A stretch of 64,000 nucleotides of DNA, taken from positions 1,550,001 to 1,614,000 of the forward strand of contig NZ_CP046444.1 in NCBI RefSeq assembly GCF_014083945.1, written 5' to 3'. The first letter of the stretch is position 1. Every line of letters begins with the position of its first letter. A model generated the notes under the pieces. That model did not search any database. It saw only the letters and a program-made list of their open reading frames with translations, and had not been told where the DNA came from. This stretch comes from Granulicella sp. 5B5 (GTDB taxonomy: Bacteria > Acidobacteriota > Terriglobia > Terriglobales > Acidobacteriaceae). Below are positions 40,966 through 48,828 of the stretch, in pieces. A program made the position numbers and the translations under genes.

Positions 40966-42396
40966 ATGAGTCAACCAATTCGGATAGCCGTGGTGGGTTC
41001 GGGATACGTCGGCCTGGTGGCAGCCGTGTGCTTCGCCGAGATGGGTCACGATGTGATCTGCGTCGACAACGATGAGAGCAAGGTAGAGGCGCTACGCGGC
41101 GGCGATACCCTGATCCATGAACAGCATCTGCCTGAACTGCTGGACCGCTACCGCAACAACCGTGTGCAGATTACAACGGACCTTGCCGAGGCCACACGCA
41201 CCTGCCAGGTGATCTTCATCGCGGTCGGCACGCCGCAATCCGAGACCGGCGATGCCGATCTCTCGTACGTGGAGGCCGTCGCGAGTGAGATTGCACGCTC
41301 GATCAACGGCTACAAGGTGGTCGTGGAGAAGAGCACGGTGCCGGTGTACACCAACGAGTGGATTCGCCGTGTGATCGAGCGCAACGGCGTGCGCCGCGAG
41401 GACTTCGATGTCGTCTCCAACCCCGAGTTTCTGCGCGAGGGCACGGCGGTGGAAGACTTCCTGCACCCGGACCGGATTGTGATTGGCGCAGACAGCGACC
41501 GCGCAGCCGCGCTTTTGAGCGAGGTATATGCGCCGCTGACCAGCGGCAGCTACTATACGCACCCGAGTTGCGTTCCGGGTGACTGCTCGGACCACCATCC
41601 GCCGCCGGCGCTGATGACCTCGACCAAGAGCGCAGAGATTATCAAGCATGCGTCGAATGCCTTCCTGGCGCTGAAGATCAGCTTCATCAATGCGGTCTCC
41701 AACCTGTGCGAGGCGGCCGATGCCAACGTGGAGCAGGTCGCGCGGGGCATTGGGCTGGACTCGCGCATTGGGCCGAAGTTTCTGCGGCCGGGCATCGGCT
41801 ATGGCGGCTCGTGTTTTCCGAAGGATGTCGCGGCGTTCCGCTCGGTCGCCGAGCAGATGGGCGTGGACTTCAACCTGCTGAGCGAGGTCGAGAAGATCAA
41901 CGCAAACCAGAAGAAGCGCTTCCTAGCCAAAGTGCGCTCGGCGTTATGGACGCTGCGCGGCAAACGGCTTGCCGTGTTGGGACTTGCGTTCAAGGGAGAG
42001 ACGGACGACATCCGCGAGAGCCCGGCGGTTGACCTTGTGGAGATGCTGCTGGCCGAGGGCAGCATGGTAGTGGCCTACGATCCGGCGGCGATGAAGCGCG
42101 CTGCCACAGAGCTGCCTCCCAGCCCGCAGATGCGTTACGCCACCAGCGTTGAAGATGCAGCCCGAGACGCTGACGCGCTGCTGATCCTGACCGACTGGAC
42201 GGAGTTTGGTGAGCTGGACCTGCAGCGCCTGCACGATATGCTGCGCTATCCCATCGTGATCGACGGCCGCAATCTGTATGACCCGCAGACGATGCTGCAG
42301 CATGGCTTCACTTACCTCAGCATCGGCCGGCCCACCGCAACACCCTCGCGTGAGGCACGCAACCCGCTGCCGGAGAGCACGGCGGTGGGTGCATAA
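40966..42396 (+). CDS. ugd: UDP-glucose 6-dehydrogenase
   Basis: 476 residues. Oxidises UDP-glucose to UDP-glucuronate with two NAD+. Rossmann start IAVVGSGYVGLVAAVCFAEM, VGTPQSETGDADL, STVPV, SNPEFLREGTAVEDF, dimer helix STKSAEIIKHASNAFLA and catalytic Cys in GYGGSCFPKDV. The C-terminal UDP-binding domain has LGLAFKGETDDIRESPA. A short Cys/His/Pro-rich insertion (SCVPGDCSDHHPPP) precedes the dimer helix and is shared, as far as I recall, with a subgroup of bacterial Ugd. It is 3 bp upstream of the decarboxylase gene, so the two form an operon supplying UDP-GlcA and UDP-xylose-type sugars for cell-surface glycans. Confidence 0.95.
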   Translation: MSQPIRIAVVGSGYVGLVAAVCFAEMGHDVICVDNDESKVEALRGGDTLIHEQHLPELLDRYRNNRVQITTDLAEATRTCQVIFIAVGTPQSETGDADLSYVEAVASEIARSINGYKVVVEKSTVPVYTNEWIRRVIERNGVRREDFDVVSNPEFLREGTAVEDFLHPDRIVIGADSDRAAALLSEVYAPLTSGSYYTHPSCVPGDCSDHHPPPALMTSTKSAEIIKHASNAFLALKISFINAVSNLCEAADANVEQVARGIGLDSRIGPKFLRPGIGYGGSCFPKDVAAFRSVAEQMGVDFNLLSEVEKINANQKKRFLAKVRSALWTLRGKRLAVLGLAFKGETDDIRESPAVDLVEMLLAEGSMVVAYDPAAMKRAATELPPSPQMRYATSVEDAARDADALLILTDWTEFGELDLQRLHDMLRYPIVIDGRNLYDPQTMLQHGFTYLSIGRPTATPSREARNPLPESTAVGA

Positions 42397-42399
42397 ACT

Positions 42400-43356
42400 A
42401 TGGTTGATCCCCTGATTCTTGTTACGGGCGCAGCGGGCTTTCTCGGCTCTCATCTCTGCGACGCGCTGCTGGCCGAAGGCCACCATGTGCTGGGCGTAGA
42501 CAACCTCGCCACCGGCAGCCTGGCCAACCTCGCCCATCTGAAGAACGAGACGCGCTTCCGCTTCGAGCAGGTCGATATCTGCACGCCGTTCGACCTGGGC
42601 CGCGTCGCTTACATCTATAACTTCGCTTCGCCGGCCAGCCCGGTGGATTACATGCGGCTCGGGATCGAGACGTTGCGTGTGGGCTCGGCCGGCACGCTGA
42701 ACACGCTGGAACTCGCGAAGAAGTACAACGCGGGCTACCTGCACGCTTCCACGTCAGAGTGCTACGGCGACCCCGAGGTGCATCCGCAGGTGGAGAGCTA
42801 CTGGGGCAATGTAAATCCCATCGGGCCGCGCTCTGTCTATGACGAGGCGAAGCGCTTCTCCGAGGCCGCGGTCAGTGCCTACCATCGCTATCACGGCGTG
42901 AACACGCACCTGGTGCGCATCTTCAACACCTATGGCCCGCGCCTGCAGGCCAACGATGGCCGCGTGATCAGCAACCTGCTGATGCAGGCACTGCGTGGCG
43001 AGCCGATGACCATCTACGGCGATGGCTCGCAGACGCGCAGCTTCTGTTACTGCTCGGACCTGATCGCTGGCATCCTGTTGCTTGCGAAGTCGAACGAGCA
43101 CGAGCCTGTGAACATCGGCAACCCGACCGAGTGGACGATCCTGGAGTGCGCCCGCGAGATCCAGTCGCTGCTCGGCATCACGGCGGAGATCGTCTTCAAG
43201 CCGCTGCCGCAGGATGATCCCGCGCGAAGGCGGCCGGACATCACCCTCGCTCGCCAGTTGCTCGGCTGGGAACCAACGGTCTCCCTGCGCGAGGGGCTTG
43301 AGCTCTCGCTGGACTACTTCCGCACGTGTGTCGCGGCGGAGCAGTCGCACGCGTAA
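42400..43356 (+). CDS. UDP-glucuronate decarboxylase-like SDR (UDP-xylose synthase)
   Basis: 318 residues, extended SDR fold. NAD motif [17 protein letters not shown], catalytic Ser/Thr in [10 protein letters not shown], YxxxK in SVYDEAKRF, plus [10 protein letters not shown] and [13 protein letters not shown], which are typical of the UXS group that turns UDP-GlcA into UDP-xylose. It lies three bases after ugd, whose product would be its substrate. A UDP-GlcA epimerase or dTDP-glucose dehydratase is less likely, given the [11 protein letters not shown] segment. Confidence 0.9.
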
Positions 43357-43420
43357 CGCGGCACGCTAACGCCGAAGCGGCCCAACTGAACTTCATCGCC
43401 ATTGAACGTTGCTCCCTTCA

Positions 43421-43464
43421 GGGGGTGGACGAAAACCCTCCTGTTCACAGACGCAGGCGCTGCC
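43421..43464 (+). promoter_or_regulatory. Conserved upstream element, copy 1
   Basis: GGGTGGA, two variable bases, AAAACCC, then TCCTGTTCAC and, seven bases on, GGCGCTGCC. Nearly the same block occurs at 48951-48992 on the same strand. Here it ends 61 bp upstream of the receiver-protein ATG. GGGT/ACCC can form a small stem. It may be a promoter or regulator-binding site; I do not recognise it. Confidence 0.5.
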
Positions 43465-43525
43465 TAGAGTAAGGACAGCTACTGCCAGAAGCTGTGATTT
43501 GAAGACAGAGAGGTTGCTGAACTCC

Positions 43526-43897
43526 ATGGCTAACGTCCTGATTGTTGACGATGACAGTTTGGTCCGAGAGTCCCTCTCCGCGCTGCTCATCGAAAGCGGA
43601 TACCAAGTTCGATCGGTGGAGGAGGGCTTTTCAGCTCTTGCCGAAGCGCAGACGAATACGCCGGACGTCCTGCTCTCCGACCTGCGCATGCCTGGGATGT
43701 CCGGCGAGGAGCTGATTCGAGAGGTGCGGCATCGCTTCCCCACGGTCAAGGTGATCGCCATGAGCGGCTCCTATTCCGGGATTGAAGTACCAGTCGGTGT
43801 CGCAGCCCATTTCTTCTATGAAAAAGGCACGGACAGGCGCTCGCTCCTGCGCCTGCTGAAGACGTGCACCGAGCCCACGCCAACTCATCTGATGTAA
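43526..43897 (+). CDS. Stand-alone receiver-domain protein (CheY-like)
   Basis: 123 residues from ATG 43526; the open frame upstream contains the conserved element and is not protein-like. Complete receiver residues: Asp8-9-10 (LIVDDDSL), phospho-acceptor Asp52 (LLSDLRMPGMSGEE), Ser in IAMSGS and the Lys in FFYEKGTD. There is no output domain, so it either acts by binding a partner or is a phosphate sink. No kinase gene is adjacent. It faces the end of the GTPase/OmpA cassette and carries copy 1 of an upstream element that is repeated on the other side of that cassette. Confidence 0.85.
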   Translation: MANVLIVDDDSLVRESLSALLIESGYQVRSVEEGFSALAEAQTNTPDVLLSDLRMPGMSGEELIREVRHRFPTVKVIAMSGSYSGIEVPVGVAAHFFYEKGTDRRSLLRLLKTCTEPTPTHLM

Positions 43898-44130: not shown

Positions 44131-45684
44131 TTACTGTTTGCCATCCAGAAGAACGTTGAAGGTAACTCTTCTGTCAAGATAGTCCTCGTATGCGTCGGCG
44201 CCAGGTCCATCCGGCGCTGCGTGACCAAGGCCCATGGCCGAAAAATACTTCGGATCGATACCGCGAGCACCCAGCAACGCAATCATGGTTTGCGCACGCT
44301 GCTGGCTGACTTCGGCATTTCGGCTTTCGGAACCGGTCCTGTCGGTATGCCCAACCACCTGTATCTGGATTTGCTTTCCCTGCGCGGTCGCATCAGCGAT
44401 CAGCGCACGCATCTGGTCGCCGATCGTATCCAGAACGGGAAGCTGCCCCATCGGGATGTCAGCAGCGTCTTCCTCAAAGTAGACGGCTTGCTTATGCAGC
44501 GATGCAGCTTCGTCCCGCAGCCGGCGCGCACCCGCGAACCGCGGATCGAGCGATAGGTACTGACCCCACTGCTCGTTCACCTTCGACGGTGAGAGGTGAT
44601 ACTTCGCCAGCAGAGAGTATGGATCAGCCGCCATGGGATCGCGCAGTCCGGCGAGGGAAAACGTTGACCAGCCACGATGCGCGTCGATCACAACGACGCC
44701 AGGCTCGGCCTTGAGGGCGCGAAGATAGTTGTGCCAACGGATGCCGGCGCACAGAGGGAAGAACGCAGCGACAAGCGCAGCAGTAAGGACAAGGCCCGCC
44801 GCGACCTTAGGCTTTGTATACGACGGGGCCGCGGCGCTGGCCGTTCCGAGGAGAAAGTCATCCAGCCGAGCATCAATGCCTGCGATTGGCCGCCCTGTGG
44901 CTTCGAACGACGCAAGCTGCGGGCGAAACGTCTCGTTGATCGCTTCAATCCGGTCGGAAAAAGCTGCCTCCAGTTGAGGCGGCAGCTGACCCCTTACAAC
45001 CAGTGCAAGAATCGCGAGCGGCCCGTGCAGGAGCCAGACCTTGAACTCCCCGATGTGCAGGACTTCGAGATCGTCCTGCTTGTTCGTCGTGAAGGAATCG
45101 CGAACGAAGTCCTGCAGAGCTGTGAGCATGCCGACGACGAGGCTTGGGTCGCCGAGAAGGTCCGGGTCTCTGCTGGATTCGGCGAGCAGGAGTCCTGTCT
45201 TTCGATGGATGAGGTAGACATGTTCGACGCGGTAGGTAAGGCTGCGCGCCAGAGCAATCTCTCCGAAGCTCTTGCCAGACCGCAGCGCTTCGATGCGCCA
45301 GCCCCAACGCTCGAGGGAGAATCCGTTGGCCAGAACGGAGTTCAGGGAGTCTAAGATTTGCTGCATCGAGTGAGCGACGGCTTTGCGCACCGCTTGTCCG
45401 ACGATGGGAAAGAGTGCGTTTGCCAGAAGCTGCGGGTCCCGCTCGACAGAGATACGCAGCGCCTCTTCAACCACCGGCTGCAATGTGGGTTGTAGCCGGC
45501 GGTCGGCCTGCACAGAAAGCGACAAGGCCTGCACGAAGATCTTGCTCGTCTCCTGAGATCGCAGGTTGGGATCGTCCAGCCTCCGGCGCAGCTCCTCCAG
45601 TTGGCGAAGCTGATCTCCGAGGAGAAGGTTCTGGAGTTCGACGAACTCGTTCTGAGATGACCGCTGCTCTTCAGGCTGAGTCAA
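44131..45684 (-). CDS. OmpA-C domain membrane protein of the small-GTPase cassette
   Basis: 517 residues. The N-terminal ~310 residues look cytoplasmic: a helical segment (LGDQLRQLEELRRRLDD) and an alpha/beta part including GEIALARSLTYRVEHVYLIHRKTGLLL and LGTASAAA. One membrane helix lies at ~315-335 (VAAGLVLTAALVAAFFPL). After it, ~385-510, is an OmpA-type peptidoglycan-binding domain (IQIQVVGHTDRTGSESRNAEVSQQRAQ region). The topology would link the cytoplasm to the cell wall. The start is TTG 45684 with AGGGG nearby, because a stop lies close upstream and no ATG is near. It is the last gene of the cassette, 30 bp after the coiled-coil gene. Confidence 0.8.
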   Translation of the reverse strand: MTQPEEQRSSQNEFVELQNLLLGDQLRQLEELRRRLDDPNLRSQETSKIFVQALSLSVQADRRLQPTLQPVVEEALRISVERDPQLLANALFPIVGQAVRKAVAHSMQQILDSLNSVLANGFSLERWGWRIEALRSGKSFGEIALARSLTYRVEHVYLIHRKTGLLLAESSRDPDLLGDPSLVVGMLTALQDFVRDSFTTNKQDDLEVLHIGEFKVWLLHGPLAILALVVRGQLPPQLEAAFSDRIEAINETFRPQLASFEATGRPIAGIDARLDDFLLGTASAAAPSYTKPKVAAGLVLTAALVAAFFPLCAGIRWHNYLRALKAEPGVVVIDAHRGWSTFSLAGLRDPMAADPYSLLAKYHLSPSKVNEQWGQYLSLDPRFAGARRLRDEAASLHKQAVYFEEDAADIPMGQLPVLDTIGDQMRALIADATAQGKQIQIQVVGHTDRTGSESRNAEVSQQRAQTMIALLGARGIDPKYFSAMGLGHAAPDGPGADAYEDYLDRRVTFNVLLDGKQ

Positions 45685-45714
45685 TTTGCCCCTTGCCGTT
45701 ATGGCACTCTTCCG

Positions 45715-46317
45715 TTACTCAGATTTGGAAGCTTCTTCATGGTCCAATTGTGACGCCATCTCGCGTAAAAGATCGGACATGAAAGCACGGTCCGTCTTTT
45801 GCGTGCGCAGCTCCGAGACCCGCATCTCCATCAAGGAGCGGAGACTGTCGTGGTGCTGGCTGATCTCATCGAGCAGCTTCCTCGACTCGGTCATCAACTC
45901 TTTCCGAAGCGCACTATCGCCATCTCTCGCGTTAGCGTCAATGTCGTTCAGGCGTTTGGAGAAGTTAGTGTGGCTCTCCTTCATGTCTCGTTCGAGATCG
46001 GTGAGCGAGGAGGTACGTTCTTCTCTTTCGCCCCTGAGGCGGGCTGCCAGGGCCTCGGACTCGCTCTTGAAGAAAGCCTCGATCGACTCGAAGCGCCGGC
46101 GCATAGTCTCTTTCAACTCGGCCGTCTCTCGATTCAGGTTCTCTTCGAGGCGCAGAAAACGCGTCTCGTAGTTCTTGATCTGCGATCCGAAGATGATGTC
46201 ACGAATTTTGTCGACACTCGCCGCCGCCTCAGGAGCATGCTCCTGAGAGGTGGCCGCATCGTGTTCGGCTGGAATGCTCTCCGTGCTGGTACTGAACTCC
46301 GACATAGTCCTGTCCAT
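45715..46317 (-). CDS. Coiled-coil protein of the small-GTPase cassette
   Basis: 200 residues, charged. After a disordered N-terminus of ~35 residues, the segment VDKIRDIIFGSQIKNYETRF leads into a nearly continuous coiled coil to ~residue 190 (heptads in LEENLNRETAELKETMRRRF, LTDLERDMKESHTNFSKRL). I recall similar proteins with an IRDxIFG-x-Q-x2-YExRF start beside GTPase/OmpA genes in cyanobacteria; that is memory, not a search. No enzyme motif. It probably bridges the GTPase module and the membrane OmpA-type protein. ATG 46305 is an alternative start. Confidence 0.75.
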   Translation of the reverse strand: MDRTMSEFSTSTESIPAEHDAATSQEHAPEAAASVDKIRDIIFGSQIKNYETRFLRLEENLNRETAELKETMRRRFESIEAFFKSESEALAARLRGEREERTSSLTDLERDMKESHTNFSKRLNDIDANARDGDSALRKELMTESRKLLDEISQHHDSLRSLMEMRVSELRTQKTDRAFMSDLLREMASQLDHEEASKSE

Positions 46318-46496
46318 TTCCGTTTCAACTCAAAGCTGCTTTATCAAAGTGTAGAAGACTTTGCCCCTCAGCCTCCAGCCGGTCCTGTCAAATTCACTGA
46401 TTTTAAGGCATATTTCCTATGATGCGCATAACCTTCGTCAAGACGGACCTACTCTCCATCGACCGCCGGGCCTATATTGGTATCTGAATAACTTGA

Positions 46497-47003
46497 CTAC
46501 ACCTTATGTTCTAACACCGAATCTTCAGTAAGTTTCGGCGGCGTCTCCGGCCGACCAAATGTAAAACGCCTCACGGCCTTCCAGAGTAGTGTCTTTTCGT
46601 GAATATAGGTCTGGTATGACTCCTGCTCTTTATATAGCTCCTCGTCAGGATGGATGAGTAACAATCGGCGCCCATTCATAGACAAGGCATAAGCAAGCAG
46701 ATGGACCTCTTTCCCGTAGATATTGTTCTGGGTCCAGAAGTCCGATTGGATGTGACTGTCCCTCACGGCTTGCTGCCAGAACTCATGGGCTTCTGGCAGG
46801 AACGATTCGAGAAACGGGAGCCGGGCCATTACAGACCGGCCAAGGCCCAGGTCTGCAAGACAATCGAACCAGGGGGGCGTCGCCTTCGCCAAAAACAGAT
46901 CTCCCTCTACTTCTTCCAGAAGGACATACTCGATCGAAGAGAGCATACGATCAAGTGCGTGAATCCCCTCCTCAGAGTCGAGCTCAGTGGCCTGCATTGC
47001 CAT
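46497..47003 (-). CDS. PAS-like small protein of the GTPase cassette
   Basis: About 168 residues from ATG 47003; TTG 47018 or ATG 46997 are alternatives. The reading frame overlaps the end of the GTPase gene, so translation is coupled. Hydrophobic/aromatic pattern IEYVLLEEVEGDLFLA, PPWFDCLADLG, FLPEAHEFW, SDFWTQNN, KEVHLLAYALSMNGRRLLLIH resembles the beta-strand order of a PAS fold as seen next to some bacterial kinases and cyclases, followed by a short helix (YQTYIHEKTLL). No cofactor residues can be assigned. It may be a sensory partner, GTPase regulator or effector. A ~180-bp gap separates it from the coiled-coil gene. Confidence 0.6.
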   Translation of the reverse strand: MAMQATELDSEEGIHALDRMLSSIEYVLLEEVEGDLFLAKATPPWFDCLADLGLGRSVMARLPFLESFLPEAHEFWQQAVRDSHIQSDFWTQNNIYGKEVHLLAYALSMNGRRLLLIHPDEELYKEQESYQTYIHEKTLLWKAVRRFTFGRPETPPKLTEDSVLEHKV

Positions 47004-47532
47004 CACCACTGGTTTCAATCATGCGTTGAGCGAGATCGAGAAACATCTTCTCAACACCCTGGCCCGTCTTGGCGCTGGTGATGCGAACGTCCCACCCTCG
47101 TTGAGTGAGCCGCTCGGTGATCTCCTCCATGCTCGGGCTCCACTCAGCCACCAGATCGGCTTTGTTCAGGGCAAAGATGAATGGCACGGGGCCTAGAATC
47201 TGGATGACCTTCTGCTGAAGTGCGATGGCCAGGTCCACAGTGTCGGGACGAGTGCCATCCGCGGCAAGCAGAAAGCCGGAGGCGCCAAGAATCTGAGAAG
47301 GCTTCAGAGTTTTCAGCGGAGACTCACCAGCCAGGTCCCATATCACGAGATTCACCTGGGAGCCACCGATAGAACACTGCTTCTTATCGATCTTGACTCC
47401 GACGGTTGTGTGATATTTTTCCGAAAAAATACTATCGACAAATTGTGACACTAAGCTTGTTTTACCTACGCTGAACTCACCGATCAGGCAGATCTTCTTC
47501 TGAACAACCATGGCTTTTGCGGGCGGTATCAC
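46984..47532 (-). CDS. Rab/Ras-like small GTPase
   Basis: 182 residues from GTG 47532, which has AAAGGA ten bases upstream; ATG 47511 lacks a ribosome site but also precedes the fold. All five G motifs are present: GEFSVGKT (18-25), switch-I Thr in HTTVG, WDLAGE (65-70), NKAD (123-126) and TSAK (152-155). The position equal to Ras Gln61 is Glu70. There is no C-terminal cysteine, so no lipid tail; membrane contact would come from partners. This is the eukaryote-like branch of prokaryotic Ras GTPases (Rup type) rather than MglA, by inference. First gene of a four-gene unit with PAS-like, coiled-coil and OmpA-C proteins. Confidence 0.9.
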   Translation of the reverse strand: MIPPAKAMVVQKKICLIGEFSVGKTSLVSQFVDSIFSEKYHTTVGVKIDKKQCSIGGSQVNLVIWDLAGESPLKTLKPSQILGASGFLLAADGTRPDTVDLAIALQQKVIQILGPVPFIFALNKADLVAEWSPSMEEITERLTQRGWDVRITSAKTGQGVEKMFLDLAQRMIETSGDGNAGH

Positions 47533-47644: not shown

Positions 47645-47686
47645 AAGCTCTTCGACATATATTCCTATTCCGCTTTCGAAGAGCTT
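47645..47686 (-). promoter_or_regulatory. Inverted repeat in leader of the GTPase operon
   Basis: agctcttcga (47646-47655) and tcgaagagct (47676-47685) are perfect 10-bp complements separated by 20 bases. In the ~190-base leader RNA this would form a stem about 115 bases before the GTPase start. A smaller dyad gaggatctcctc follows nearer the start. Confidence 0.45.
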
Positions 47687-47845: not shown

Positions 47846-47879
47846 CCGATGTACTCAGAAAAGCTTCTGAGTACATCGG
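47846..47879. terminator. 15-bp perfect hairpin between LuxR gene and GTPase promoter
   Basis: ccgatgtactcagaa / ttctgagtacatcgg with loop aagc. It lies ~280 bp after the LuxR-type gene stop (minus strand) and ~90 bp upstream of the GTPase promoter. No T-run. It may end LuxR transcripts or bind a regulator; the rest of 47533-48159 holds no supported gene. Confidence 0.5.
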
Positions 47880-48159: not shown

Positions 48160-48828
48160 TTAGCGAGCACCCATGTTCTGCTGGTGTTTGAGCGCATATT
48201 GACGCGCCTCCGAACGATTGTTAGCACCGATCTTCGCGTAGAGCGTGCGAAGATGCCAGCGCACCGTTTCACGGCTGATAAACAACTCGTCGGCGATCGC
48301 CTGGTTCTTCTTGTCCATGCCGAGCAGGCGCAGAATTTCTTCTTCACGCTCTGTAAGTTTCTTGCGAGATATGCTCTGGTCCAGCATCCATTGGCGGGCC
48401 AGAGCCGCCAGAACGTTTCTGGGGTACCAGAGGTCTCCGCGTTGTATTGCAGTGATCACAGCGCGCAACTGCTGAGGCGGCGCATCGAGGGCGAGTACGC
48501 CGGAGCAGCCCGCAAGCAGCGCGACTCTGTAGACGTCGTTGTGAGAGCTGTTGCTCAGCGCAAGAACTTCTACCGTGGACAGGTACTCGACCGCAGGGAC
48601 CTGCTCCGATTCCAGTTGTTCGAGCGATTCAACGTCGACGATGAGTATCACTGAGCCCACCAGCTTGCAGAAGCGCACGGTTCGCCATGAATCCGGCTTC
48701 GACTCGAGGATGTGGCACTCAGGCAGTGATTGCGTGACAAACTCTCTCGATCTCCTCGTCAGTCCGGCTGCTACTAACGTGACATCTTCGGGCTGCTTAG
48801 AGAAATGAGGCGTCAGTGGGTGATCCAT
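48160..48828 (-). CDS. LuxR/NarL-type regulator with degenerate receiver
   Basis: 222 residues. The C-terminal ~65 form a LuxR-type HTH (LTEREEEILRLLGMDKKNQAIADELFISRETVRWHLRTLYAKIG). The N-terminal ~140 have the length and strand pattern of a receiver, but the first strand (VTLVAAGLTRR) lacks the acidic pair, and only Asp65 in LIVDVES remains near the phosphorylation site; the GDLWYP segment before the HTH is as in NarL family members. So it is probably phosphorylation-independent. It lies upstream, on the same strand, of the GTPase cassette and may regulate it, perhaps through the palindrome at 47712. Confidence 0.85.
   Translation of the reverse strand: MDHPLTPHFSKQPEDVTLVAAGLTRRSREFVTQSLPECHILESKPDSWRTVRFCKLVGSVILIVDVESLEQLESEQVPAVEYLSTVEVLALSNSSHNDVYRVALLAGCSGVLALDAPPQQLRAVITAIQRGDLWYPRNVLAALARQWMLDQSISRKKLTEREEEILRLLGMDKKNQAIADELFISRETVRWHLRTLYAKIGANNRSEARQYALKHQQNMGAR

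What the first reader, a model, noticed from the sequence alone, without database searches (positions are those of the whole stretch)
44131..47532. Four-gene Rab-like GTPase / PAS-like / coiled-coil / OmpA-C cassette
Sequence shows a complete eukaryote-like small GTPase (all G motifs, Glu at the Gln61 position, no lipid cysteine) whose gene overlaps a PAS-like gene and is followed on the same strand by a coiled-coil gene and a membrane protein with a cytoplasmic N-terminal half and a periplasmic OmpA-type peptidoglycan-binding domain. My inference: a switch that senses something in the cytoplasm and acts on, or anchors to, the cell wall, with the coiled coil as bridge. I recall a similar IRDxIFG coiled-coil plus OmpA pairing in cyanobacteria, so the cassette may be widespread but uncharacterised.
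Basis: partly seen in the sequence, partly recalled or inferred. Interest (0 to 1): 0.78.

Follow-up and report, generated by a model that had tools for sequence, protein, structure and literature searches.

The report
Wall-tethered Ras-like GTPase signalling cassette
A bacterial gene cassette pairs a eukaryote-like small GTPase with a protein that crosses the inner membrane toward the cell wall, and the inner half of that protein is predicted to have the fold of proteins that regulate such GTPases in animals and yeast, making it a candidate for the regulator this kind of cassette was lacking.

Summary
The four genes are real and form a conserved cassette, already in print as a prediction: the Group 1 Rup GTPase neighbourhood of Wuichet and Sogaard-Andersen (PMC4316618; abstract and passages seen). 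Of 95 relative loci, 88 have coiled coil-OmpA protein-GTPase in that order; 81 of 95 have an adjacent input-domain protein of 250 aa or more, with kinase, hybrid kinase, NtrC-type, GGDEF or cyclase outputs among those scanned.
What I add:
(1) The OmpA protein's cytoplasmic domain, left as "unknown function" there, is predicted to fold as roadblock/longin, the fold of MglB, Ragulator, TRAPP and Mon1-Ccz1. The host genome has no Pfam Robl_LC7 match.
(2) The "PAS-like" gene is the input domain of the output protein, with its output missing. In two draft genomes no such domain was found, while the other three genes show purifying selection.
(3) A LuxR-type gene at 48160-48828 travels with the cassette in this lineage.
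Proposed mechanism: a wall-tethered platform controls a Ras-like switch that gates an output. No complex was modelled and I saw no biochemistry.

The parts
46984..47532 (-). Rab/Ras-like small GTPase (Rup Group 1 type), 182 aa; Glu70 (47323-47325) at the Gln61 position; no C-terminal Cys
46497..47018 (-). P2-type PAS input domain alone, 173 aa (start TTG 47018 or ATG 47003); Gln136-Thr137 at the place of the conserved effector glutamine; no output domain
45715..46317 (-). long helical (coiled-coil type) protein, 200 aa, with N-terminal IRDIIFG motif (46186-46206)
44131..45684 (-). transmembrane OmpA-domain protein, 517 aa: helical N-terminus, predicted roadblock/longin domain, hydrophobic helix, OmpA-type domain
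44929..45267 (-). predicted roadblock/longin domain (residues 140-252) of the OmpA protein
44749..44808 (-). predicted transmembrane helix (about residues 293-312)
   Evidence: hydropathy only
44212..44478 (-). OmpA-type domain (residues 403-491)
48160..48828 (-). LuxR/GerE-type regulator, 222 aa, upstream of the GTPase; found with the cassette in this lineage; first half receiver-like by eye only, no Pfam match there

Best explanation
This is a variant of the Group 1 Rup signalling cassette. The OmpA protein is a wall-tethered transmembrane receptor: its periplasmic domain would hold peptidoglycan, and its cytoplasmic half carries a roadblock/longin domain that (as a dimer, or with the coiled-coil protein) binds the Ras-like GTPase and sets its nucleotide state. 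The GTPase in one state binds the PAS input domain of the output protein and switches the fused kinase, cyclase or regulator. In this genome the output domain is missing, leaving the PAS input domain as an adaptor, and the LuxR-type regulator encoded just upstream may have taken over the output. Computed here: gene content, conservation, predicted folds, output types, absence of the output domain, co-occurrence of the LuxR gene. Inferred: peptidoglycan binding, GTPase binding, GAP or GEF action, direction of signalling, the adaptor role, the LuxR link.
For: Cassette: 88 of 95 loci have CC-OmpA-GTPase in this order; L029 and L093 are the same sequence, so 94 are distinct. Outputs: of 42 P2 proteins scanned (of 80 P2 ORFs), 32 have HATPase_c, 15 a receiver, 2 a sigma54 domain and 1 GGDEF; of 18 T1 proteins scanned (of 57 T1-only ORFs, of which 20 exceed 150 aa), 11 have a class III cyclase domain and 3 HATPase_c. 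Fold: AlphaFold2 of residues 1-285 (pLDDT 85.7, 66 sequences) gives alpha-beta-beta-alpha-beta-beta-beta-alpha at 140-252; the 50 PDB matches printed (of 1089 at E up to 10; 14 at E up to 0.001) all carry titles of entries that hold roadblock or longin-type proteins, by my reading and recall, among them TRAPP, Ragulator, Mon1-Ccz1-Ypt7 and MglB (best E 1.3e-4). A profile comparison with 12 MglB-like proteins is weak (E 0.0074) but in the right register, above 60 of 60 column shuffles (score 22.2, best shuffle 19.3) and above the reversed profile (18.3). Among 15 secondary-structure elements b1 (0.91) and a2 (0.82) are the most conserved. No Robl_LC7 match in the host genome; no MglB-like ORF at E up to 0.01 in the 95 neighbourhoods. 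Core without output: G401 and G498 have CC-OmpA-GTPase and no P2 match at E up to 0.1, with NG86 dN/dS between them of about 0.09 (GTPase), 0.07 (CC) and 0.18 (OmpA protein). LuxR: a match at 1e-40 or better in 2 of 250 family genomes, the two with the permuted cassette.
Against: No sequence-level match of the domain to Robl_LC7 in any of 66 members at E up to 0.02 and a low hhalign probability (5.2%), so the assignment rests on a predicted fold. No complex was modelled. In PMC4316618, 0 Rup members were coupled to an MglB homologue. In this genome the output is missing and the effector glutamine has moved by one residue, so the unit could be decaying. Only 1 of 12 genomes of the genus and 7 of 250 of the family match the OmpA-protein profile, so it is dispensable there. 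The dS values exceed 1, G401 and G498 are drafts (210 and 130 contigs; G498 93% complete), and that the output was absent already in their common ancestor is assumed.
Confidence: 0.6

Rival explanations
1. GAP in the output protein: as speculated in PMC4316618, a glutamine in the input domain of the output protein completes the active site in trans, and the roadblock/longin domain is only a scaffold or anchor.
For: Gln is nearly absent from G3: Glu in 85 of 93 readable GTPases, Gln in 1. The T1 domain has two adjacent glutamines in 60 of 60, and P2 has Gln at the second position in 76 of 79.
Against: In the window, L018 and L033 the second position is Thr, Met or Leu, with Gln one residue earlier; G401 and G498 keep the GTPase under purifying selection with no P2 match (T1 was not searched genome-wide there).
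Confidence: 0.35
2. Decaying remnant: the cassette in this genome is a patchily kept or laterally acquired unit that has lost its output and is on the way out.
For: Patchy presence (1 of 12 in the genus), missing output domain and no other P2 match in the genome, faster change of the PAS protein (46% identity to L018 against 61-70% for the other three); G408 has a split OmpA gene and no GTPase match.
Against: All four frames are open and the GTPase motifs intact; stand-alone P2 proteins of 191 aa occur in L023 and L025, and 37 of 52 cyanobacterial loci have a stand-alone T1 protein; the LuxR protein is 67% identical to that of L018.
Confidence: 0.25
3. Structural or polarity module: GTPase, roadblock platform and coiled coil position envelope machinery, as MglA and MglB do for motility, and signalling proteins are optional clients.
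For: The three-gene core persists without a detected output gene; no signalling homology was found for the coiled coil.
Against: 88 of 95 loci have an adjacent input-domain protein and 81 of 95 one of 250 aa or more, with signalling domains in most of those scanned.
Confidence: 0.2

Closest known systems
Group 1 Rup GTPase neighbourhood (Wuichet and Sogaard-Andersen 2014, PMC4316618)
   Same: Same four kinds of gene: Rup GTPase without G3 Gln, coiled coil, unknown domain-TM-OmpA protein, and a protein with the conserved input domain
   Different: In the window the output domain is missing, the gene order is GTPase-PAS-CC-OmpA, the effector Gln is shifted by one, and a LuxR-type gene is added; the paper left the OmpA protein's domain as unknown and does not use the word longin in its main text
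Actinobacterial conservon (CvnA-D)
   Same: GTPase encoded with a roadblock protein and a kinase
   Different: The conservon GTPase is MglA Group 2 and CvnB is a separate MglB homologue; here the predicted roadblock/longin domain is part of a membrane protein with an OmpA domain, and the G3 Asp is kept
MglA/MglB
   Same: Roadblock-fold partner beside a Ras-like GTPase
   Different: Sequence similarity to MglB-like proteins is barely detectable; MglB lacks a membrane and OmpA part (recall)
Eukaryotic Ragulator, TRAPP and Mon1-Ccz1
   Same: Roadblock/longin platforms for small GTPases at a membrane; among the best fold matches
   Different: Not transmembrane or wall-bound (recall); no sequence relationship shown

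Membership tests
Rup Group 1 system | Rup rather than MglA GTPase: G3 Asp kept, G motifs Ras-like | tested here: met
   WDLAGE; Asp in 93 of 93 readable sequences, the window included; the distinction is from PMC4316618
Rup Group 1 system | no Gln in G3 | tested here: met
   Glu70; Glu in 85 of 93 readable
Rup Group 1 system | neighbouring cytoplasmic coiled-coil gene | tested here: met
   coil itself judged by periodicity only
Rup Group 1 system | neighbouring conserved domain-TM-OmpA protein | tested here: met
Rup Group 1 system | fourth gene is a signal transduction output module | tested here: not met
   173 aa, input domain only; no other P2 match in G000. So it is filed as a variant, not as a full member
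Rup Group 1 system | invariant Gln in the N-terminal region of the fourth protein | tested here: inconclusive
   Thr at the conserved position, Gln one residue before; the paper's logo was not seen, so that it is the same Gln is inferred
Rup Group 1 system | branches with Group 1 in a tree of small GTPases | not tested
   no tree built
Roadblock/longin superfamily (OmpA protein residues 140-252) | alpha-beta-beta-alpha-beta-beta-beta-alpha fold | tested here: met
   predicted model and Foldseek
Roadblock/longin superfamily (OmpA protein residues 140-252) | match to Pfam Robl_LC7 | tested here: not met
   0 of 66 members at E up to 0.02 (full list of 13 families); at E up to 10 printed 25 of 66 families, none of them Robl_LC7. 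So kinship by descent is not shown, only a like fold
Roadblock/longin superfamily (OmpA protein residues 140-252) | dimer that binds a small GTPase | not testable with these tools
   no complex prediction available
Conservon | separate MglB-type roadblock gene and MglA Group 2 GTPase | tested here: not met
   no Robl_LC7 match in G000; no MglB-like ORF in the 95 neighbourhoods; G3 Asp kept

The most novel reading that the evidence does not exclude
Many bacteria have a transmembrane, peptidoglycan-facing roadblock/longin receptor that directly sets the nucleotide state of a Rab-like GTPase. It would be a wall-sensing counterpart of Ragulator or TRAPP built into one protein, reading envelope state into interchangeable kinase, cyclase and transcription outputs through PAS input domains that carry a conserved glutamine pair.
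Probability: 0.45. Interest if true: 0.86.

Novelty: new variant of a known kind. Interest (0 to 1): 0.62.

Why it matters
In the paper that named the family no Rup GTPase had been characterised and the GAP of Group 1 was called unknown. A concrete candidate regulator with domain boundaries turns that into a bench test: does residues 120-262 of the OmpA protein bind and regulate the GTPase? It would link the cell wall to a Ras-type switch. It also bears on where roadblock/longin platforms and their GTPases first met, since that paper reports Group 1 Rup proteins as very similar to Rab/Ran/Ras/Rho. The genomes without a detected output gene and the glutamine shift make the earlier trans-Gln proposal directly testable.

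Tried and rejected
Stand-alone sensor reading of the PAS-like gene: rejected as the general case, since 73 of 95 loci have the domain in a protein of 250 aa or more. Defence system: the only PADLOC matches are the OmpA region to ZorB (5.7e-7, 1e-4), which I take as generic. GGDEF remnant after the PAS gene: tblastn of the L018 output against the window gave nothing credible (best E 0.21, at 58.3-58.4 kb). Sequence-level proof of roadblock kinship: Pfam none, PDB sequence profile only one match at E 0.22 to a phage tail protein, hhalign weak. An empty site in the genus: the two genes at 40966-43356 have 79-83% relatives in three same-genus genomes, but no other window protein matched there at 1e-20, so no empty site could be defined. 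dN/dS of the window against L018: dS could not be computed, saturated. Wider phyla through the genome search: not possible; named loci were used. Promoter-like sites 2 against 1.8 expected, terminator-like 6 against 3.4 (sd 2.0): not informative. The P2-T1 kinship had no shuffle control. An earlier count said that the effector Gln is kept in the window; this was wrong and is corrected.
Full report
What is there. The GTPase is Ras/Rab-like (Pfam Ras 1.5e-26, best PDB match Rab21). The second gene encodes a predicted PAS fold (AlphaFold2 pLDDT 87.3; PAS and LOV structures lead the PDB matches) although no Pfam model matches it. The third is a long helix with IRDIIFG near its start. The fourth has a helical N-terminus, a globular cytoplasmic domain, one hydrophobic stretch and an OmpA-type domain.

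Is it a unit? In a draw of 297 genomes of the phylum, 16 carry the coiled-coil gene, the own genome included. In the 15 relatives the OmpA gene is with it every time and the GTPase in 14 of 15. Over all 95 loci, 88 show CC-OmpA-GTPase in that order. The other seven are one permuted (L018), one without a GTPase match (L021), two with CC and OmpA only (L078, L103) and three without a CC match (L043, L053, L071); L053, L071 and L078 lie near contig ends. Loci were chosen by CC or OmpA, so only the GTPase and the effector genes are an unbiased part of this count. L029 and L093 are the same sequence, so 94 are distinct.

It is already in print. Wuichet and Sogaard-Andersen (PMC4316618; abstract and passages seen, not the whole text, figures or supplement) describe Group 1 Rup GTPases beside a coiled coil, a domain of unknown function often followed by a membrane helix and OmpA domain, and an output protein whose N-terminal region has an invariant glutamine, and compare the system with the conservon. 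They state that no Rup member had been characterised. In seven searches I saw no later paper on a Group 1 Rup system, from listings only and often partial ones: 5 of 5 listed; 15 of 20; 15 of 8,985, uninformative; 5 of 5; 20 of 29; 15 of 17, the most direct; 10 of 19. Subscription journals are mostly not held.

The PAS gene and the output. In relatives the same input domain (here called P2) heads long signalling proteins: 73 of 95 loci have it in a protein of 250 aa or more. Of 42 P2 proteins scanned out of 80 ORFs, 32 have a kinase ATPase domain, 18 HisKA, 15 a receiver, 6 Hpt, 2 a sigma54 domain, 1 GGDEF and 1 SpoIIE. A second input domain (T1), about 130 residues, stands alone in 37 of 52 cyanobacterial loci or is fused: of 18 longer T1 proteins scanned, 11 have a class III cyclase domain and 3 a kinase ATPase domain. 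P2 and T1 are probably related (hhalign 67.5%, E 5e-5, no shuffle control). T1 has two adjacent glutamines in 60 of 60; P2 has the second in 76 of 79 with letters, and the three exceptions (the window, L018, L033) have the first instead. So at least one glutamine of the pair is present in all 139 aligned domains.

The window variant. The P2 protein here is 173 aa with no output domain, and no second P2 match exists in the genome at E up to 0.1. L018, from another genus of the family, has the same permuted order but keeps a GGDEF domain. In G401 and G498 the core three genes are adjacent with no P2 match in the draft genome, and between these two genomes the core shows NG86 dN/dS of about 0.07 (CC), 0.18 (OmpA protein) and 0.09 (GTPase); dS is above 1, so these are rough. 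G408 has CC, a split OmpA gene and no GTPase match. The core can therefore outlive its output, and it can also be lost. The profile of the OmpA protein matches 1 of 12 genomes of the genus and 7 of 250 of the family.

A fifth gene. The LuxR-type gene at 48160-48828 is 67% identical to the gene upstream of the GTPase in L018. Among 250 family genomes a match at 1e-40 or better exists in exactly those two. In 12 other genomes of the genus the matches are 23-42% identical, mostly over part of the protein. By eye its first half looks receiver-like, but Pfam matches only the DNA-binding part.

The domain of unknown function. AlphaFold2 of residues 1-285 from 66 sequences (pLDDT 85.7) gives helix-strand-strand-helix-strand-strand-strand-helix at 140-252. 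Foldseek reports 1089 PDB matches at E up to 10, 14 at E up to 0.001, and prints 50. By their titles all 50 come from entries that hold roadblock or longin-type proteins: TRAPP, Ragulator, Mon1-Ccz1 with Ypt7, MglB, a Thorarchaeota roadblock, Ego3, clathrin and COPI adaptors, and axonemal complexes; that the matched adaptor and axonemal chains are of this fold is from recall. Best E is 1.3e-4; target-normalised TM is 0.44-0.66 for most and 0.18-0.28 for the long or odd chains. Sequence methods alone do not see it. A profile comparison with 12 MglB-like proteins of the class gives E 0.0074 and probability 5.2%, in the right register, above all 60 column shuffles, above the reversed profile and above six other pairings (E 0.06-0.55). 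The most conserved elements are b1 and a2, then the helix before b1; a2 is the face that contacts GTPases in MglB and longin complexes (recall). The own genome has no Robl_LC7 match; 9 of 61 genomes of the class draw have one. The 95 neighbourhoods hold no MglB-like ORF.

Mechanism. I propose that the periplasmic domain holds the wall, the roadblock/longin domain receives the GTPase and sets its nucleotide state, and the loaded GTPase engages the PAS input domain, whose glutamine pair may take part in hydrolysis. The coiled coil shares a short N-terminal motif with the OmpA protein (hhalign E 0.0022, probability 13%, above 60 of 60 shuffles and above five other segments), so both may dock on the same partner. 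In this genome the LuxR protein is the likeliest remaining output. Fold, gene content and conservation are computed; binding, catalysis and signal direction are inferred.

Verdict. A known kind of system for which I saw no experimental work, in a new variant, with a new and testable assignment for its unknown domain. After checking, confidence in the best explanation was lowered from 0.62 to 0.60, because the effector-less genomes are drafts and T1 was not searched in them.

Noticed in passing
window 47846-47879 and 47645-47686: Two perfect inverted repeats (15-nt arms 4 apart; 11-nt arms 20 apart) in the gap between the LuxR-type gene and the GTPase; a different inverted repeat lies in the same gap of L018. 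Could be operator sites.
   Followed up: partly
window 45616-45636 and 46186-46206: Coiled coil and OmpA protein share a short N-terminal motif, roughly [IVL]Rx[IL][IL][FL]G.
   Followed up: partly
window 44131-45684: The OmpA proteins of the window, L018 and L019 (517-529 aa) are shorter than the other 13 in the alignment (558-628 aa), mostly in the periplasmic part.
   Followed up: no
L029 11483-12615 and L093: Two Rup GTPase genes in tandem in one cassette (same sequence in both loci).
   Followed up: no
L055 10142-15719: Desulfobacterales cassette with two T1 and two P2 proteins in a row.
   Followed up: no
L032 11005-13856: By eye a hybrid-kinase gene and an NtrC-type gene directly after the GTPase, without a recognised input domain.
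   Followed up: no
window 43409-43897: Stand-alone response regulator receiver (Pfam 6.5e-21) converging on the cassette from the other strand; link to it unknown.
   Followed up: no
window 40966-43356: Two genes, by eye UDP-sugar enzymes, with 79-83% identical relatives side by side in three same-genus genomes, in which no other window protein matched nearby.
   Followed up: partly
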